Source of the DNA: Pyxidicoccus sp. MSG2
GTDB taxonomy: Bacteria; Myxococcota; Myxococcia; Myxococcales; Myxococcaceae
DNA length: 64,000 nucleotides
Assembly (NCBI RefSeq): GCF_026626705.1
Contig: NZ_JAPNKC010000001.1
Location: 3,410,001 to 3,474,000 of the forward strand
Direction: 5' to 3'
The notes under the pieces are model-generated. The model saw only the letters and a list, made by a program, of their open reading frames with translations, did not search any database and was not told where the DNA came from. The translations under genes and the position numbers were made by a program. Positions 16,031-63,714 of this stretch are shown one piece after another (the stretch's first letter is position 1; each line of letters opens with the position of its first letter).

Positions 16031-17119
16031 TCAGGCCGGCGCGGTCAGCTTCACCTTCTTCATCACGTGGTCGACGGTGGCCAGGTGCAGCGCCAGGTCG
16101 TACAGCCGCCGGGCGAGCGCCGCGTCCTCCTTCACCGTCTTGCCCAGATCCTGGCGGGACACGCCGGACAGGCCGGCGAGGTCGTTGATGAGCGCATCCG
16201 TGGCCTTCTTCTCCGGCTGCACGCCGTCACGCGTGGCGATGGCCCGCAGCGCCAGGGCCAGCGTCAGGCGCCGCACCGCGTCCGCGCGGGTAAGCGAATC
16301 CCGCTGCCACCCCTCCAGCGCCTCCTGCAGTTCGTCCGGCTGGAAGGCCTTGCGGGCGAGGATGGGGCGCTCGGTCTCCGCCCAGCGGCGGCGGATCTCC
16401 TCGTTCACCAGCGCGGTGGACAGCGACACCTGCGTGCGCTCCACCAGCACGTCCATCACCCGCTCCTGGGTGAGGCGGTCCATCTCCTCGGTGCGCTCGC
16501 GGGCCAGCTCCTCGCCCAGGTGGCGCATGACGTCCGTGAGGCTGGCCATGCGCAGCCGCTTCAGCAGTTCCGGCGAGTCATCCGCCAGGAGCTTCAACTC
16601 CTGCGCCGCCTTCACGTCCAGGAGGAAGCGCGCCGTCTGCCCGCGCAGCGACTCCACGGGCCAGGTGTCCGGCAGCTTGAGCTCGATGCCGAAGGACTGA
16701 CCCACCTTCGCGCCGGCCAGCGCCTCGAAGAAGCCCGGCAGTACCGGGTCCGCAATCACATGCGTCCGCCAGTCCTCCCGCGTGGAGAAGGGCAGCAGCC
16801 GCCCGTTGGCGAAGCCGAGCACGTCCAGGAGCACCTCGTCCCCCACGCCCACGTCCTCACCCGGCTTGCGCACGCGGCGGTCGGCGTACTGGCGGCGGAG
16901 CGCATCGAAGCGGTCGAGGACGTCCTGCTCCGTCAGCGGAGCCGGGGGCACCAGGGCCACCGTCAGCCCCTCCAGCGAGGGGGCGGTGACGGTGGGGATG
17001 TCCACCGGCTCGGTGCTGTCCAACGAGAAGGCGGCGGGCATCCGCTTCATGATGCCGAGCGCGTGAAGCTCGGCCAGCGAACGCGCTCCGCCGCCCTTCG
17101 GGTCGTCCTTCGTCGTCAT
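16031..17119 (-). CDS. Trigger-factor-like chaperone lacking the ribosome-binding domain
   Basis: 362 aa. Residues about 48-180 match the trigger-factor linker and FKBP-type PPIase domain (LTEQDVLDRFDALRRQYADR; VGDEVLLDVLGFANGRLLPF; LPGFFEALAGAKVGQSFGIE). The rest is the helical C-terminal chaperone domain. The normal N-terminal ribosome-docking domain with its GFRxGKxP signature is absent and replaced by about 45 unrelated residues. It should therefore be a client-binding chaperone that does not sit at the ribosome exit. Its start is 30 bp after the stop of the Ala-rich gene, so the two are probably one operon and that protein is a plausible client. Confidence 0.78.
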   Translation of the reverse strand: MTTKDDPKGGGARSLAELHALGIMKRMPAAFSLDSTEPVDIPTVTAPSLEGLTVALVPPAPLTEQDVLDRFDALRRQYADRRVRKPGEDVGVGDEVLLDVLGFANGRLLPFSTREDWRTHVIADPVLPGFFEALAGAKVGQSFGIELKLPDTWPVESLRGQTARFLLDVKAAQELKLLADDSPELLKRLRMASLTDVMRHLGEELARERTEEMDRLTQERVMDVLVERTQVSLSTALVNEEIRRRWAETERPILARKAFQPDELQEALEGWQRDSLTRADAVRRLTLALALRAIATRDGVQPEKKATDALINDLAGLSGVSRQDLGKTVKEDAALARRLYDLALHLATVDHVMKKVKLTAPA

Positions 17120-19025: not shown

Positions 19026-19774
19026 TGGGTGGCCGCACCGCTCGACGCCTCGCCACGCGGCTGGGTGAGCTGGAGTGCAACGTCGTCGACGCGCTCCCCG
19101 AGGGCGCGGCGCCCGAACTGGCCGTCATCCTCTGTCACGGCTTCGGCGCTCCGGCGACGGACCTGGTGCCGCTCGCGCCGGAATTGATGTCGGTGGAGGC
19201 GTCGCTCGCAGACCGCGTGCGCTTCATCTTCCCCGGCGCCCCGCTGACGCTGGCGGAGTGGGGCATGCCCGCCGGGCGCGCGTGGTTCCACCTGCCCGAG
19301 GCCATCATGCGCGGGCAGCTCCGCGACTGGGACCTCTTCGCCCGCGAGGTACCTCCGGGCCTGCCGGCCGCGCGCCGGGCGATGATGAGCGTGGTGGACG
19401 CGGTGTCCACCTCCACGAAGCTGCCGTATGGCCGCATCGTTCTGGGCGGCTTCAGCCAGGGCGGCATGGTGACGACGGACGTGGCGCTGCGGCTGGAGGA
19501 AGCGCCCGCGGGTCTGTGCATCCTGTCCGGCACGCTCACCTCGGAGGCGGAGTGGCGGCAGAAGGCCCAGGCCCGCAAGGGACTGCCCGTGTTCCAGGCC
19601 CACGGCCGCGATGACACCGTGCTGCCCTTCTCCGCCGCCGAGCGCCTGCGCGACGTGCTGACGGAGTCCGGGCTGGCGGTGGACTTCCACCCCTTCGACG
19701 GGCCGCACACGATTGACTCCGAGGAGCTGGAGCGGCTGGCCGCGTTCCTGCTGGCGCGGCTGGGAGGGCGCTGA
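19025..19774 (+). CDS. Phospholipase/carboxylesterase family hydrolase
   Basis: 249 aa. ATG 19025 overlaps the preceding stop by one base; a GTG three bases earlier is an alternative. The alpha/beta hydrolase motifs are LAVILCHGFGA, the nucleophile elbow GGFSQGGMV (Ser near 143), GRDDTVLPFSAAERL (Asp near 198) and GPHTID (His near 228). This order is that of the carboxylesterase/thioesterase (EstB/YpfH) family. Cytoplasmic. It forms an operon with the cyclophilin and YjbQ genes. Confidence 0.86.
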   Translation: MGGRTARRLATRLGELECNVVDALPEGAAPELAVILCHGFGAPATDLVPLAPELMSVEASLADRVRFIFPGAPLTLAEWGMPAGRAWFHLPEAIMRGQLRDWDLFAREVPPGLPAARRAMMSVVDAVSTSTKLPYGRIVLGGFSQGGMVTTDVALRLEEAPAGLCILSGTLTSEAEWRQKAQARKGLPVFQAHGRDDTVLPFSAAERLRDVLTESGLAVDFHPFDGPHTIDSEELERLAAFLLARLGGR

Positions 19775-58949: not shown

Positions 58950-59126
58950 TCAGGGAATGGGCGACTGGATGATGTAGTAGATGCCCTGGAAGTACCGCTG
59001 CAGGCCGTTGATGAGCTGCACCAGGAACGGCCAGCCCAGCACGGTGAAGCCCAGCAGCGCGGCGGTGATGGCCGAGTACTCCACCATCGCCTGACCGCGC
59101 GCTCTCGCGAGGAACCCGGCCTTCAT
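58950..59126 (-). CDS. 58-aa Flp/Tad-type pilin-like protein
   Basis: Small gene, ATG 59126 to TGA 58950, overlapping the preceding stop (ATGA). The N-terminus ARGQAMVEYSAITAALLGFT has the class III prepilin pattern: Gly, then a processing-type QAMVEY with Glu at +5 and a hydrophobic helix, as in Flp pilins and TadE-like pseudopilins. The remainder (WPFLVQLINGLQRYFQGIYY) is short and hydrophobic. It is likely a major or minor pilin of the Tad cluster. Convergent with the binding-protein gene. Confidence 0.82.
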   Translation of the reverse strand: MKAGFLARARGQAMVEYSAITAALLGFTVLGWPFLVQLINGLQRYFQGIYYIIQSPIP

Positions 59127-59413
59127 TTCCCACCCCCGGTCCCCGGAGCGGGCGCCGGCACCTTGGACGGAGGCTCAGGCGCCTTCGCCGCGGCCTCGCA
59201 GCCCTCCAGGCACTTCTTCTTCGTGTCCGCGACGAGCTTCTGGCACTTCGCCAGGGCCGCGCCCGCCTTCGCTATCTTCGTGCAGGTCTCGTCGAAGGCG
59301 ACCTCGTCGCCGTCACACCTGCGCGTGCACGCGTCCACCGCGCCCGCGGGCCCGGCGGCGAGCCACAGCCCCAGCCCGGCCAGCACGGCCAGCGCCCCCT
59401 GGGTCGTCTTCAT
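59123..59413 (-). CDS. Small Cys-rich exported protein of the Tad cluster
   Basis: 96 aa from ATG 59413 (an ATG at 59440 overlapping the previous stop would add 9 residues). Signal peptide LAVLAGLGLWLAAGPAGA. The mature part has six Cys in a helical context (VDACTRRCDGDEVAFDETC; LAKCQKLVADTKKKCLEGCE), probably three disulfides, then a Pro/Gly tail. No family recognised. It sits between two pilus-assembly genes with overlapping ends, so a role in the pilus or its secretion is likely. Confidence 0.72.
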   Translation of the reverse strand: MKTTQGALAVLAGLGLWLAAGPAGAVDACTRRCDGDEVAFDETCTKIAKAGAALAKCQKLVADTKKKCLEGCEAAAKAPEPPSKVPAPAPGTGGGK

Positions 59414-59436
59414 CGGTCCTTCCCTCCAGAATCCCA

Positions 59437-60291
59437 TCATGGCGCGCCCCCCCGTCGCAGCAGGGACAATTGCAGCTCCACGCCCGGCGACTTCTCGCGC
59501 AGCACCGCCCTGCCCCGCGACTCCTGCCGCTCCAGCTCGAAGGCGATGCCTCCCGTCTGTATCGGCTCCGTCGCCCCCGCCTGCCACCCCTTCTCCCGAA
59601 GCACCGCCCGGTAGCGCGCCTCCGCGCCCCCGAGCGTGTCCTCCGGCAGCTTCCCGGACACCACCTGGTGCGTGGAGCCCTCCATGTCGAAGGTCATCGC
59701 CAGCGGCTCCGTGAGCCCCGGCGGCACCGGCACCCACGCCGGCACGCCCCGGCCCCGCTCCACGAGCCCCTTCACCTGTCCGGACGACACGAAGACCAGC
59801 GTCTCCCCGCCCTGCGCCAGCACCGACACCAGCCGCACCTCGAGCGAGTCCGGGCTCCAGTAGCCCACGTAGCCACCGTTGTCCCCGTGCGTCTCCCGGA
59901 CGACGGGCAGCCCCATGTCCAGCAGCACCTTCGCGTAGTGCCCCAGCACCTGCGCCGGCGTGTCCCGGGTGGAGAACCACGCCACCGCCATGGACGTGTC
60001 CGGCCCCAGGTAGTCCGCCGCCAGCACCTCGGGGCGGCTGCCCGCTCGCGGGTAGGGCGGGAAGTGCGACAGCGCCCGCTGGAGGATGGCCTCCTCGGCC
60101 GGCGTGCGCGCCAGCTCGCGCGTGGAGCCCTCCTCCCCGTGCCCGGGGAACTCCGGCGGCGCCCACTCTCCCGCCGGGGCGCTGCTTCCATACGAGACGC
60201 GCTCCCAGGCGAAGCCGATGAGGCAGCCCACCACCGCCACGGAGAACAGGAGGGCGGGGATGCGGACGGCCCGCCCTGATGCCGCCGCCAT
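59437..60291 (-). CDS. Membrane-anchored protein of unknown function in the Tad cluster
   Basis: 284 aa from ATG 60291, sharing one base with the previous stop (TGATG). N-terminal membrane helix (IPALLFSVAVVGCLIGFAWE), then a periplasmic part of two similar beta-alpha halves (ADYLGPDTSMAVAWFSTRDT; DMEGSTHQVVSGKLPEDTLG). No family recognised. The overlapping gene order ties it to the pilus genes. Confidence 0.7.
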   Translation of the reverse strand: MAAASGRAVRIPALLFSVAVVGCLIGFAWERVSYGSSAPAGEWAPPEFPGHGEEGSTRELARTPAEEAILQRALSHFPPYPRAGSRPEVLAADYLGPDTSMAVAWFSTRDTPAQVLGHYAKVLLDMGLPVVRETHGDNGGYVGYWSPDSLEVRLVSVLAQGGETLVFVSSGQVKGLVERGRGVPAWVPVPPGLTEPLAMTFDMEGSTHQVVSGKLPEDTLGGAEARYRAVLREKGWQAGATEPIQTGGIAFELERQESRGRAVLREKSPGVELQLSLLRRGGAP

Positions 60292-61373
60292 CAACAGGGT
60301 TCCTCTGGCTTGCAGCCCATGTACCCGGTGCCGCGCGCGTCCCGGGTCTTCTCGTTGCCGTTCTGGCCCCAGTCGCGCCACTCGCTGTTGAAGTAGCTCT
60401 GCGAGCTGCCCTGCTGGGTGATGCTCTCCTCCGGCGCGTCGTCACCGAACGTCTTGATGGCCATGCTGGGCTCGCGCGGGTCATCGCCCGCGGGCTTGCC
60501 ATCCAGGCTCAGGTTGTCGGCGAGTATCTCGTTGTCGATGGCCTCGTCGACGTAGTCGGCGGCCGCCTGCGACATGTCCGAATAGCCCTGGTTGTCCTGG
60601 TGCTTGTACAGGTGGGACACGCGCTCGAAGAGGTCCCCCGACTTCGCGCCGGGCCGGATGTCGGCGGGCTCGGTGAGCGCCCAGGTGTCGGTGAGCACGG
60701 AGAGCCGCTCCCACGGCAGGAGGTAGACGTTGCCGGCCAGGCCCGTCGGGTCCGCCTGGTAGGTGCCGCCCCTGGCGTTGTTGTGGACGCCCGCGCCCTT
60801 GCTCTGCTTGTCCTTGGCCAGGTCCACCTTGGAGAACTCCGCGAAGACGCTGCGCTGCAGGAGGTAGTTCTGCACGCCGATGCGCGCCGAGCAGCGGATG
60901 AGGCCGCCCTTGCCGTACTCATCCATGTAGGACTGGTGCATCGACACCCCGTACTCGCCCACCACGGCGCCGCCCGCGTTCAGCGTGCACTCCACCTGCT
61001 GGGAGCCGGGGTTGAGCCAGCAGGCGTGGGACACGATTTCCTGGTGGTGGATTTCCTCGTCCCCACACTCGCGGGGGTTGGGCCCGTTCTCGAAGCTGTC
61101 GATGCCCGACTCGTGGTCGCAGTACGTCTGGCGCGCATAGCCCTGGACCAGGCCGAAGCCCGCGAACTTCTCTCCGCCCTGCGGCGCCTTGGCGTAGTCC
61201 TGGACGACGTAGTCCCAGACGGTGGAGAGCGCGGTCTCCTGCGCGTCCAGGGCGTGGCGCAGCAGGTCGTCCAGGAAGAGCGAGTAGAGGAACACGGGGA
61301 CGATGACCAGCATGCTCAGCGCCAGCTCCACCGAGGCGGCGCCCCGGGCCGCACGGGCCTGCGCGCGCCTCAC
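60291..61373 (-). CDS. TadE-like pseudopilin, large form
   Basis: 360 aa from GTG 61373, overlapping the previous stop (GTGA). The N-terminus RGAASVELALSMLVIVPVFL is a TadE-type processing site with Glu at +5 and a membrane helix. The large C-terminal domain is Asp/Tyr-rich with several Cys (TYCDHESG; RECGDEEI; GYMGCKPEEPC) and may form a folded extracytoplasmic head. TadE proteins are usually near 150-200 aa, so this is long. Confidence 0.8.
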   Translation of the reverse strand: MRRAQARAARGAASVELALSMLVIVPVFLYSLFLDDLLRHALDAQETALSTVWDYVVQDYAKAPQGGEKFAGFGLVQGYARQTYCDHESGIDSFENGPNPRECGDEEIHHQEIVSHACWLNPGSQQVECTLNAGGAVVGEYGVSMHQSYMDEYGKGGLIRCSARIGVQNYLLQRSVFAEFSKVDLAKDKQSKGAGVHNNARGGTYQADPTGLAGNVYLLPWERLSVLTDTWALTEPADIRPGAKSGDLFERVSHLYKHQDNQGYSDMSQAAADYVDEAIDNEILADNLSLDGKPAGDDPREPSMAIKTFGDDAPEESITQQGSSQSYFNSEWRDWGQNGNEKTRDARGTGYMGCKPEEPC

Positions 61374-62902
61374 AGCGACACCCCCGGCACGCGCGCCATG
61401 TCGGCCGCATCCTGGTTGCCCGCCGCCTCCAGCACCCTGCCGGCCTCGTCACCGTCGCGGAAGGGGTGCAGCTTCGCGCGCCAGTAGGGGCCGAAGAGGT
61501 TGGGCGGCTCGCGCCAGCCGTTGTCCCCGAAGCGGTGGTAGTAGACCAGCGCCTTGGACAGGCCCACGCCCTCGTCCGCGGACAGCGTGAGCCGGCCCGA
61601 GCCCTGCGCGCCGTGCTGGAACTCCAGCGAGGCCGAGCTGTTCAGCTCCCAGGGCGTCTTCTTGGGGTCTCCGCCCCGGAACTGCTTGGTGACGTAGCTG
61701 TACACGCGCGGCTGGCCCCAGTCCCGCGTCGCGGAGGGGTTGGCGCGGAACTTCATGAAGCAGTTGCCGGACTGCGAGCAGGCCGTCAGCGCCTTGGCGT
61801 TGACGCCCTCGAACGGGTGCTGCCCCGAGTGCGCGCCGCTCGGCTCGTGGCCGCCGTTGCCCTCGTCGCTCCAGACCTCCGCCTTGTAGGGCGACATGCC
61901 GATGCCGTGCTTCCACTTGTGGAAGATCATCCCCTCCTCCGACGCCGCCACCACGAGGCCCGAGTTGCCGCCCTGCTGGCCCCCGCCGTTGACCTCGCCG
62001 TGGTCCTGCACGGTCTTCGCCGTGCCCACGTGCCGCATCACCTGGTAGTTGCCCTCGTCGGGGATGTCCTCGAACTTGTCCATGAAGTCCGAGTGCAGGT
62101 ACGCCGGAATCTGGATGGAGGGGATGCCGCCCGTCTCACGGGTGGCGGGCCAGCCGGAGCGGCTCGCGTTGGCCACCTCCGTCATGACCCGTGCGCGCGT
62201 CTCGGGGGAGGTGCTCGCCACACTGCCCTGGCAGTCCATGCCATCCACCGCGCAGTTGAACTCGTTGGCGTTCATGCCGCCCACCTGCTGCGCCAGGAAG
62301 GTGGCGCCGGGGGCGTTGTATTCCGTCAGCTGCTCCAGCCCGTTGCTCCGGCCGTCCTTCACCGACTTGAGCGTGTTGTCGTGGACCGAGCGCTGGGCGA
62401 TGTGGAGGTTGTCCACCATGAGGTCCAGGCCCTTCATGGCATTGACGAAGTTCGTCTCCATGCCGCGGACCTTCTGGTCGTAGTCATCGCCCTCCTGGCT
62501 GAACTCGCTGGCAATCTGCACGGCCTCGGCGGCGTGGACGCAGTGCTCGATACAGGTGTAACACATACACCTGATGACCTCGAGGGCGGCAATCTGGAAG
62601 AAGTTGTTGCGCGCCGCGCGCATCATCTCGCCCGTGACGCTGGCGGCGGCCACGTACGCGTGGATGCTGTTCATGGCCACGTACGAGCCGGCGATGGCCC
62701 GGTTGCCCACCGCGTAGTAGTTGAGCGCGCGCGCCTCCAGCACCGCCATGGAGTAGGCCAGCGCGTCGCTGTGCTGCTGCAGGCTCATCTTCTGGCGCAG
62801 CGCATGGCTGAGGTTGAAGCTCAGCGTCACCATCAGCGCGAGAATCAGGAAGGACAGGGCGCTGAGCACCATCGCCTGCCCGCGGCGCGCCCTCATCCTC
62901 AT
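61370..62902 (-). CDS. TadG-like pilus-assembly protein
   Basis: 510 aa from ATG 62902, overlapping the previous stop (ATGA). RRGQAMVLSALSFLILALMV is the N-terminal membrane segment with a prepilin-type G-Q start, though Leu takes the place of Glu at +5. A long helical part (YYAVGNRAIAGSYVAMNSIH) and a C-terminal domain with Cys pairs (RCMCYTCIEHC; CSQSGNCFMKF) follow. TadG-family proteins have this TM-plus-large-domain plan. Confidence 0.8.
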   Translation of the reverse strand: MRMRARRGQAMVLSALSFLILALMVTLSFNLSHALRQKMSLQQHSDALAYSMAVLEARALNYYAVGNRAIAGSYVAMNSIHAYVAAASVTGEMMRAARNNFFQIAALEVIRCMCYTCIEHCVHAAEAVQIASEFSQEGDDYDQKVRGMETNFVNAMKGLDLMVDNLHIAQRSVHDNTLKSVKDGRSNGLEQLTEYNAPGATFLAQQVGGMNANEFNCAVDGMDCQGSVASTSPETRARVMTEVANASRSGWPATRETGGIPSIQIPAYLHSDFMDKFEDIPDEGNYQVMRHVGTAKTVQDHGEVNGGGQQGGNSGLVVAASEEGMIFHKWKHGIGMSPYKAEVWSDEGNGGHEPSGAHSGQHPFEGVNAKALTACSQSGNCFMKFRANPSATRDWGQPRVYSYVTKQFRGGDPKKTPWELNSSASLEFQHGAQGSGRLTLSADEGVGLSKALVYYHRFGDNGWREPPNLFGPYWRAKLHPFRDGDEAGRVLEAAGNQDAADMARVPGVSL

Positions 62903-63714
62903 TTGCCGTAGGAGAACGGGAACTTGCATAGGTTGCTCTCGGGCAGGCTGTTCTTGTTCAGGTAGAAGTTCGACTGCATCCGCATGGTGTAGGTGGCACG
63001 GATGGGCATGATGTAGACGCCCTGCGCGGCCGCGTCGTCGTACGTGCCCTCCGACTTGCCGGCGCTGGCGAACCTGCGCCCCTGCACCTTGCTGATCTCC
63101 GCCTGCTTCATCTTTCCCATGCGCAGCACGGACGTCACCTCGCGCCCGCGGGCCGCGTGGTAGATGACCCAGTCCGCGAAGGGGATGATCATCCGGTAGT
63201 TGAACGTCACCTGGACACGCAGCTTGGTGCGCGCGCTCTCGCGCCACCCGTCCGGGCTGGTGTTCTTCGGGTCGTCGAAGTCCAGCTCCGCCGAGCTCGC
63301 GGGGATGTCCTCCTTCGTGGGCCCGCAGATGGTGACTTCGGCGTACTTCAGCGAGACGCCCGGCATCTCGTTCGTCGACAGCTCACTCCACTTGGTCTCG
63401 AACTCCTGCGCGGTGCCGACGGGGCGGATGACCTCGATGCCGTCCTGGCCGCCCGTGCGGGTGCCCACCATGGGCAGCAGCACCGCGAGCGCGGCCTTCT
63501 CCATCTCGTCCACGTTGGCGTTGTGCAGGGAGCCGGCGCGCACCGCCTTGTAGGCGGCGTACTTCGTCATCAGCCGCGCCTGGTGCATCAACCCCAGCTG
63601 GAGGATGCCCAGGATGAGGAAGACGAACAGCGGCAGGACGATGGCGGCCTCCACCGCAGCCTGGCCCGACTGGGTCTCCGTCCCCGCGCGGAGTGGATTC
63701 GTCGGACGACGCAT
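62899..63714 (-). CDS. TadE family pseudopilin
   Basis: 271 aa from ATG 63714. The N-terminus SGQAAVEAAIVLPLFVFLIL is a classic TadE processing region with Glu at +5, then helix and QLGLMHQARLMTKYAAYKAV. The C-terminal domain carries SLKYAEVTICGPTKEDIPAS and a Lys/Asn-rich end (FYLNKNSLPESNLCKFPF). First gene of the coupled six-gene cluster; the 215 bp upstream should hold its promoter, but no clear hexamers are seen. Confidence 0.88.
   Translation of the reverse strand: MRRPTNPLRAGTETQSGQAAVEAAIVLPLFVFLILGILQLGLMHQARLMTKYAAYKAVRAGSLHNANVDEMEKAALAVLLPMVGTRTGGQDGIEVIRPVGTAQEFETKWSELSTNEMPGVSLKYAEVTICGPTKEDIPASSAELDFDDPKNTSPDGWRESARTKLRVQVTFNYRMIIPFADWVIYHAARGREVTSVLRMGKMKQAEISKVQGRRFASAGKSEGTYDDAAAQGVYIMPIRATYTMRMQSNFYLNKNSLPESNLCKFPFSYGK

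What the first reader, a model, noticed from the sequence alone, without database searches (positions are those of the whole stretch)
58950..63714. Six-gene translationally coupled Tad minor-pilin cluster with Cys-rich and unknown members
All five junctions overlap or nearly touch. Four of the six proteins carry a prepilin-like G-(Q/A)-A-x-V motif (GQAAVE, GQAMVL, GAASVE, GQAMVE), one with Leu replacing Glu5. Two proteins (284 aa and a 96-aa protein with six Cys) match no family I know. The TadE/G-like proteins are unusually large. The cluster looks like an assembly that builds a special tip or a secretion apparatus rather than a standard Flp pilus.
Basis: partly seen in the sequence, partly recalled or inferred. 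Interest (0 to 1): 0.55.

Follow-up and report, generated by a model that had tools for sequence, protein, structure and literature searches.

The report
Tip3-type predation pilus gene cluster
Six overlapping genes of a bacterium-eating myxobacterium encode the spear-like tip of its killing pilus, a tip already known from a relative, plus two poorly understood helper proteins that may show how the tip is assembled or loaded.

Summary
In detail: six minus-strand genes, 58950-63714, overlap at their junctions, and four encode prepilin-like proteins. The cluster is the tip3 kind of KilLMN "Tip" cluster of the Kil (Tad-like) predation pilus published for Myxococcus xanthus (Herrou 2025): KilM3, KilN3, KilL3 and the Flp adapter KilO. 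The main text of that paper does not mention the two "unknown" genes (its supplements were not readable here). P0004 (284 aa) is an inner-membrane-anchored protein with two tandem DcrB/Eag-like domains. It is in all 41 complete tip3-type loci fetched; in two genomes it is fused to a KilN-like protein beside a T3SS-type effector/chaperone pair. P0005 (96 aa) is a secreted helical hairpin with a Cys ladder; one rung is lost only as a pair (9 of 35 proteins, 0 asymmetric). Best mechanism: a KilN-capped Tip joined to the pilus by KilO, with P0004 as assembly or loading factor and P0005 as Tip-linked cargo or part (inferred). New member of a known kind.

The parts
62899..63714 (-). KilM3-type minor pilin (TadE-like), 271 aa, prepilin site G/QAAVE
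   Evidence: PF07811 E 4.1e-13; first gene of the cluster; orthologues in all tip3-type loci fetched, two of them cut by the fetched region
61370..62902 (-). KilN3-type large minor pilin (TadG-like), 510 aa, prepilin site G/QAMVL without Glu5; presumed terminal cap with the exposed domain
   Evidence: Pfam Tad sub-threshold; homologues in 116 of 145 class genomes; residue 5 never Glu in 57 homologues
60291..61373 (-). KilL3-type minor pilin, 360 aa, GTG start, prepilin site G/AASVE
   Evidence: No Pfam hit; orthologues at 49-94 % identity in the same place
59437..60291 (-). P0004: bitopic inner-membrane protein, TM helix 8-34 with GxxxG, then two tandem DcrB/Eag-like (Mog1/PsbP-like) periplasmic domains; proposed Tip assembly or loading factor
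   Evidence: natural fusions to a KilN-like protein in two genomes
59123..59413 (-). P0005: small secreted Cys-rich protein (96 aa), C-x3-C-x10-C-x12-C-x10-C-x3-C, predicted helical hairpin with three nested disulfides
58950..59126 (-). KilO-type Flp adapter pilin, 58 aa, prepilin site G/QAMVEY
   Evidence: 27 of 27 genus genomes have a match; orthologues in L093/L094 are 59 aa, the length given for KilO (PMC12075869)

Best explanation
The six genes are a tip3-type minor-pilin module of the Kil (Tad-like) contact-dependent predation pilus. KilM3, KilN3 and KilL3 are made as prepilins, cut at the Gly by a prepilin peptidase, and form a three-helix-based spearhead. KilN3, which lacks Glu5, is the terminal cap and carries the exposed domain. 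KilO is the short Flp adapter that joins this Tip to the shaft of major pilin (KilP). The rest of the machine is encoded elsewhere in the genome. P0004 is an inner-membrane-anchored periplasmic protein with two tandem DcrB/Eag-like domains that holds KilN or helps to load or assemble the Tip (inferred). P0005 is a secreted, disulfide-laddered helical hairpin, either part of the Tip or cargo of it (inferred). Shown in M. xanthus by others: Tip and KilO function in pilus priming and killing. Shown here: gene content, synteny, presence of the machine, P0004 fold prediction and fusion, P0005 Cys covariation. Not shown: any function in this organism.
For: PMC12075869 (whole-text parts 1-7 of 13 read, plus term searches): four KilLMN Tip clusters; the tip3 cluster holds KilO (mxan_1150), a 59-aa Flp needed only by Tip3; Tips prime KilP polymerisation. 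Here: M-N-L-P0004-Flp order in 41 of 41 complete tip3-type loci (own locus included; loci were chosen because they hit P0002 or P0004; L059 is cut by a contig end, L087 has P0004 in front of KilM, L063 repeats L061). Position check: in genome G012 the KilM4-type TadE lies at 5,744,885; taking it as mxan_4660 gives 1232.8 bp per gene number and predicts mxan_1150 near 1.418 Mb; the Flp lies at 1,416,676. In G077 the same sum misses by about 18 kb. Machine in own genome: kil cluster II in L010/L115 (KilMNL4, KilK, RcpC/CpaB E 7.8e-22, two T2SSF) and kil cluster I in L116 (FHA-T2SSE E 1e-64, secretin E 1.4e-42, 176-aa prepilin peptidase); candidate KilP at 9.42 Mb. P0004: held-out profile finds homologues in three other Tip clusters of the genome, E 3e-27 (L009), 2.9e-11 (L010, between KilL4 and KilK), 4.7e-5 (L011); two KilN-P0004 fusions. 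P0005: best profile hit within 6 kb of P0004 in 24 of 34 genomes not used for the profile.
Against: No M. xanthus record with locus tags could be fetched, so the link to mxan_1150 rests on gene content, Flp length and genome position, not on a direct sequence match. The major pilin KilP was only proposed by a sub-threshold Flp hit (24.9 bits, cut-off 32.2). P0005 is missing from 9 of 41 loci, among them the Myxococcus ones nearest M. xanthus (L056-058, L093-096), so it cannot be an obligate part of Tip3. The tandem second Tip3 copies (L056-058, L095, L096) lack P0004, so P0004 is not strictly needed per Tip, or is shared. The P0004 fold match covers one domain, Z 8.8-10, and Foldseek gave no match at E <= 1e-3. 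The P0005 model has mean pLDDT 71.5 and no Foldseek match at E <= 0.001.
Confidence: 0.92

Rival explanations
1. The cluster builds a separate, self-standing Tad or T2SS-like secretion apparatus rather than a Tip of the Kil pilus.
For: Own operon, far from the tad core genes; T2SS-like secretion by the Kil pilus is discussed as a possibility in PMC12075869.
Against: No ATPase, platform or secretin gene in the 32 kb beyond the window edge that I read; four of the T2SSE-bearing regions I read (L111-L114) look PilT-like in sequence (my reading, no family test) and the FHA-T2SSE is in kil cluster I; homologues of the same genes sit inside kil cluster II.
Confidence: 0.04
2. P0005 is a Tip-borne or Tip-delivered antibacterial hairpin peptide (cargo), and P0004 loads it.
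For: Sec-like signal, Cys ladder, gene place between P0004 and KilO, faster change than its neighbours (40 % identity to L062 against 68-79 % for the other five); one family member hits Pfam Toxin_13 at E 5.5e-5 and the profile's only two PDB hits, both weak, are 1vib neurotoxin B-IV and 2m6a; a second, differently spaced ladder family accompanies another Tip cluster.
Against: PDB hits have E 0.3-0.5; 34 of 35 members do not hit Toxin_13; Cys spacing alone can attract such hits; no immunity gene was recognised beside it; absent in Myxococcus loci that still have Tip3.
Confidence: 0.2
3. P0005 is a periplasmic chaperone or structural staple of the Tip (helical hairpin that shields pilin helices), with no toxicity.
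For: Tip pilins are hydrophobic at the N terminus and, per PMC12075869, rich in predicted disulfides; the resemblance to small-TIM-type twin CX3C hairpins is recalled, not tested.
Against: Lost in lineages that keep the Tip.
Confidence: 0.35
4. P0004 is the coupling part between Tip and T3SS rather than a general Tip assembly factor.
For: KilN-P0004 fusions in G100 and G137 lie beside a DUF1521 protein and a SycD/LcrH-like protein; in G137 all junctions overlap. The only DUF1521 hit of the own genome lies in a T3SS locus with SctV, SctN, SctU and a SycD-like protein. PMC12075869 reports that Tip1-3 function requires T3SS*.
Against: Only 2 of 145 genomes show the fusion among P0004 hits (read); the SycD hits are below the NCBIfam cut-off (66 against 104.8 bits at best); two other DUF1521-SycD loci read (L151, L152) have no fusion; the ordinary P0004 genes are not near T3SS genes; I did not prove that this T3SS locus is T3SS*.
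Confidence: 0.2

Closest known systems
Tip3 of the M. xanthus Kil system (KilL3/M3/N3 with KilO, mxan_1150 region; Herrou et al. 2025, PMC12075869)
   Same: Three large minor pilins of the TadE/TadG kind plus a 58-59 aa Flp in one cluster apart from the Kil core; same genus group; consistent genome position in a related complete genome
   Different: Window cluster also has P0005, which the seven Myxococcus-group loci (L056-L058, L093-L096) lack; the paper's main text does not discuss P0004 or P0005 (supplements not readable here)
Tip4 / kil cluster II (KilL4-N4-M4, KilK)
   Same: Same M-N-L-P0004-like-Flp order in the own genome (L010)
   Different: Lies next to KilB/G/H; P0004 copy is distant (held-out E 2.9e-11)
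DcrB / Eag chaperones (DUF1795, e.g. SciW, EagT6)
   Same: Predicted fold of the second P0004 domain (Z 8.8-10, 85-89 residues, rmsd 1.8-2.6)
   Different: No Pfam DcrB hit, tandem duplication, N-terminal membrane helix, presumably periplasmic, no T6SS context seen
Alpha-hairpinins (plant; PMC11591084, passages read) and neurotoxin B-IV (1vib)
   Same: Antiparallel helical hairpin with nested CX3C disulfides (for 1vib recalled)
   Different: Different spacing (C3C6C3C10C3C6C3C in most P0005 relatives), bacterial, no significant sequence match; likely convergent

Membership tests
Kil Tip3 cluster (tip3, KilO) | Three kilLMN-type minor-pilin genes plus a ~59-aa Flp in one cluster, outside kil clusters I and II | tested here: met
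   kil clusters I and II found elsewhere
Kil Tip3 cluster (tip3, KilO) | Direct sequence orthology to mxan_1150 and neighbours | tested here: inconclusive
   No named M. xanthus record reachable; position and Flp length in G012/G077 agree
Kil Tip3 cluster (tip3, KilO) | Tip3 primes KilP pili and contributes to prey killing | not testable with these tools
   Experimental result of PMC12075869 for M. xanthus only
Tad minor pilins TadE/TadG | Pfam TadE domain in the first pilin | tested here: met
   P0001 PF07811 4.1e-13
Tad minor pilins TadE/TadG | Pfam Tad (TadE/G-like) domain over cut-off in the large pilin | tested here: not met
   P0002 PF13400 16.9 bits, below cut-off 22.3; P0003 no hit. 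The paralogues in L010 and L012 are over it
Flp pilin | Pfam Flp_Fap hit | tested here: not met
   P0006 no Flp_Fap hit; it has size, prepilin site and Glu5 of an Flp, so it works like one
Complete standard tad locus | tadA/B/C, rcpA and cpaB beside the pilin genes | tested here: not met
   None in L007/L008 or in the window part read
DcrB/Eag (DUF1795) for P0004 | Same fold | tested here: inconclusive
   VIA Z 8.8-10 for residues 193-281; Foldseek DcrB prob 1.00 but E 3e-3
DcrB/Eag (DUF1795) for P0004 | Pfam profile match | tested here: not met
   0 of 48 members hit DcrB at E <= 0.1
Alpha-hairpinin / Toxin_13 for P0005 | Profile match | tested here: inconclusive
   1 of 35 members hits PF07822 (5.5e-5), window protein does not; PDB E 0.31 and 0.48
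Alpha-hairpinin / Toxin_13 for P0005 | Helical hairpin with nested disulfides | tested here: inconclusive
   AF2 helices 25-47 and 52-77, pLDDT ~90 there; C29/C72, C33/C68, C44/C57 all sum to 101; rung 3 lost only in pairs. Disulfides themselves not shown

The most novel reading that the evidence does not exclude
P0004 is a so far unnamed fourth component of Kil Tips that couples the KilN cap to cargo: Eag-like domains at the inner membrane load either a secreted, disulfide-laddered hairpin peptide (P0005) or T3SS-exported proteins onto the pilus tip. This would make the Tip clusters the place where the missing killing effectors of myxobacterial predation are encoded.
Probability: 0.2. Interest if true: 0.8.

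Novelty: new member of a known kind. Interest (0 to 1): 0.5.

Why it matters
How the Kil pilus kills, and how it works with a needleless T3SS, is open in the paper that described the Tips. The window shows that Tip clusters carry two more conserved families. One, P0004, is fused to a KilN-like protein and sits next to T3SS-type effector and chaperone genes in two relatives. The other, P0005, looks like a disulfide-stapled hairpin of the kind often used as a peptide toxin. Both make the loading question directly testable with single-gene deletions in Tip-only strains.

Tried and rejected
Standard tad locus at the window edge: read about 32 kb beyond it, none. P0004 as a pilin: rejected, no prepilin motif; the conserved G22/G26 are in a membrane helix. 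P0004 as lipoprotein through C23: rejected, C23 not conserved. Own gene caller and iterated profiles: the iterated P0003 and P0005 searches drifted (171 and 59 hits, several per locus and in overlapping frames) and were not used for counts; P0004 was re-tested with a held-out profile and P0005 with a Cys-pattern scan. In one search, 38 rows were returned; I dropped three before counting: a 477-aa Cys-rich frame, a repeat protein cut by the locus end, and the differently spaced 107-aa protein of L012. That left 35 (26 with 8 Cys of the ladder, 9 with 6, one of these with an extra Cys). The pattern allowed one-sided loss of rung 3 but would not see loss of other rungs. PADLOC: no hit. Sigma-70 promoter scan: nothing, uninformative in this GC-rich genome. 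P0005 Foldseek: 3 matches, best E 5.2. dN/dS: below 1 for all six genes (0.21-0.33 to L060, 0.34-0.79 to L091), but strong codon bias makes dS unreliable, so no weight is put on it. The four T2SSE-bearing regions L111-L114 looked PilT-like by eye and were not assigned to Kil; L117-L119 were fetched too and showed no tad genes by eye. Searches for print; I found no mention of P0004- or P0005-like proteins in the PMC12075869 main text (term search), but its supplements were not readable, so I do not claim they are unpublished.
Full report
Observation. If P0005 starts at its inner ATG, one junction is a gap of 23 nt. The four prepilin-like motifs and the Leu at position 5 of the 510-aa protein are as stated. 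Pfam recognises TadE in the first protein (4.1e-13) and only grazes Tad in the second; the other four have no meaningful hit in Pfam, NCBIfam or PADLOC.

Setting. The window lies at 3.41-3.47 Mb of a 13.3-Mb genome. The closest named relative of the cluster is Pyxidicoccus caerfyrddinensis (95 % in P0002). Beyond the window edge there are DUF4388, TPR and HemN-type genes and no tad gene. On the other side is a periplasmic binding protein gene in the opposite direction, then Rrf2 and SufB genes.

The machine is elsewhere. The own genome has six TadE hits at five places. One is kil cluster II: KilM4/N4/L4, a P0004-like gene, an Flp (KilK), CpaB/RcpC (7.8e-22) and two T2SSF proteins. Kil cluster I is at 0.65 Mb: an FHA-fused T2SSE ATPase (1e-64), a secretin (1.4e-42), FHA proteins and a short prepilin peptidase (176 aa). 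A candidate major pilin with G/QGMTEY is at 9.42 Mb, below the Flp_Fap cut-off. Two SctV genes exist. This two-cluster arrangement is the one described for the M. xanthus Kil system (PMC8460266, passages read; PMC12075869, parts 1-7 of 13 read).

Identity. PMC12075869 reports four KilLMN Tip clusters and states that the tip3 cluster contains mxan_1150, a 59-aa Flp adapter called KilO that works only with Tip3. The window cluster has exactly this content. In unnamed complete genome G012, placing the KilM4-type gene (5,744,885) at mxan_4660 predicts mxan_1150 near 1.418 Mb, and the Flp is at 1,416,676; in G077 the same sum is off by about 18 kb. The Flp in both genomes is 59 aa (L093, L094). I could not fetch a named M. 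xanthus record, so this is strong but indirect.

Conservation. Of the loci fetched, 41 of 41 complete tip3-type ones (own locus included) have the order KilM-KilN-KilL-P0004-Flp. They were picked because they hit P0002 or P0004; one further locus is cut by a contig end and one has P0004 moved in front. P0006 is found in 27 of 27 genus genomes. The cluster changes faster than its flanks: to L062, 40-79 % identity inside against 89-97 % for five neighbours. KilN never has Glu5 (0 of 57; six of these are probably mis-parsed), while KilM, KilL and Flp almost always do. In type II secretion the Glu5-less pseudopilin GspK caps the tip (recalled), which fits KilN as the terminal subunit.

P0004. No family (48 members). 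AF2 with 48 sequences: pLDDT 83, a membrane helix 8-34 with an almost invariant GxxxG, then two beta-beta-alpha-beta4 domains. The two halves are homologous by profile comparison (probability 92.8 %, E 4e-7). The second domain resembles SciW/EagT6 and DcrB (Z 8.8-10, 85-89 residues, rmsd 1.8-2.6); Foldseek alone is below its usual threshold. Eag chaperones hold transmembrane segments of T6SS effectors (PMC7773334, passages). A held-out profile finds P0004 homologues in three of the four other Tip clusters of the genome, the third weakly. Two genomes, G100 and G137, encode a KilN-like protein without prepilin motif fused to a P0004 domain pair (KilN profile E 3e-24 and 4e-22; P0004 profile 3.5e-65 and 9e-64). 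Next to each fusion are a DUF1521 protein and a SycD/LcrH-like protein; in G137 every junction overlaps. DUF1521 is the autocleavage domain of type III-secreted NopE-type proteins (PMC6506597, passages). The single DUF1521 hit of the own genome lies in a T3SS locus with SctV, SctN, SctU and a SycD-like protein. So P0004 goes with KilN, and in two genomes both go with T3SS-type genes. Whether this T3SS locus is T3SS* was not proven, and two other DUF1521-SycD loci that I read (L151, L152) have no fusion.

P0005. Relatives lie in 32 of the 41 loci; they are absent in L056-058, L072, L079 and L093-096. Most have the palindromic spacing C3C6C3C10C3C6C3C. The window protein lacks the third and sixth Cys. 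On a KilN tree the state changed at least three times, so the pair is gained or lost together, as expected for one disulfide. AF2 gives a hairpin, helices 25-47 and 52-77, in which the Cys pairs 29/72, 33/68 and 44/57 face each other by numbering. A profile finds it in 66 of 145 class genomes; the best hit is within 6 kb of P0004 in 55 of 66, and in 24 of the 34 genomes not used to build it. A second ladder family with another spacing (C3C10C3C(8-17)C3C10C3C) goes with another Tip cluster: the own genome and 9 of 15 fetched relatives. Links to peptide toxins are weak: 1 of 35 members hits Toxin_13 (5.5e-5), and the profile's two PDB hits have E 0.31 and 0.48.

Mechanism, step by step. Shown for M. 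xanthus by others: Tips prime the KilP pilus at prey contact; KilO serves Tip3; KilA is needed for Tip2-4; Tip1-3 killing requires T3SS*. Inferred here: KilN3 caps the Tip; P0004 at the inner membrane holds KilN or loads the Tip; P0005 is exported by Sec and is either a part, a chaperone or a cargo. I rank chaperone/part slightly above cargo because Tip3 persists without P0005 in Myxococcus.

Novelty. The cluster is a new member of a known kind. The accessory families are not treated in the paper's main text; its supplements could not be read, so I make no claim that they are unpublished.

Noticed in passing
L084:3551-6888 and L141:1113-4490: KilN-like protein fused to P0004, next to a DUF1521 protein and a SycD/LcrH-like chaperone; in L141 all junctions overlap. 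A genetic bridge between Kil Tips and T3SS-type genes.
   Followed up: partly
L012:4842-5165 (own genome) and L124, L125, L127, L129-L131, L133, L135, L138: Second family of secreted Cys-ladder proteins (C3C10C3C-n-C3C10C3C) in or near another Tip cluster, also in genomes that lack P0005 such as G077.
   Followed up: partly
L056, L057, L058, L095, L096: Tandem second KilM-N-L-O copy right after the tip3 cluster, without P0004 or P0005; the three named ones are Myxococcus species.
   Followed up: no
L009:7236-11924: A fifth Tip cluster in the own genome with its own P0004 homologue and its own 66-aa Flp, possibly a third adapter pilin.
   Followed up: partly
L148:16278-16505, 16809-17036, 19407-19634: Three identical 75-aa ORFs in a T3SS locus, of needle-protein size; no Pfam or NCBIfam match above threshold (YopE_N 0.09).
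   Followed up: partly
L060:13951-16037: About 2 kb of extra DNA between KilO and the periplasmic-binding-protein gene compared with the window and L062.
   Followed up: no
G000:C1:8734553-8736490: A second SctV (FHIPEP) gene in the own genome besides the one at 1.58 Mb.
   Followed up: no
L074:5230-5523, L075:1426-1686, L099:6143-6424: A further, mutually very similar Cys-ladder paralogue beyond the Flp gene.
   Followed up: no
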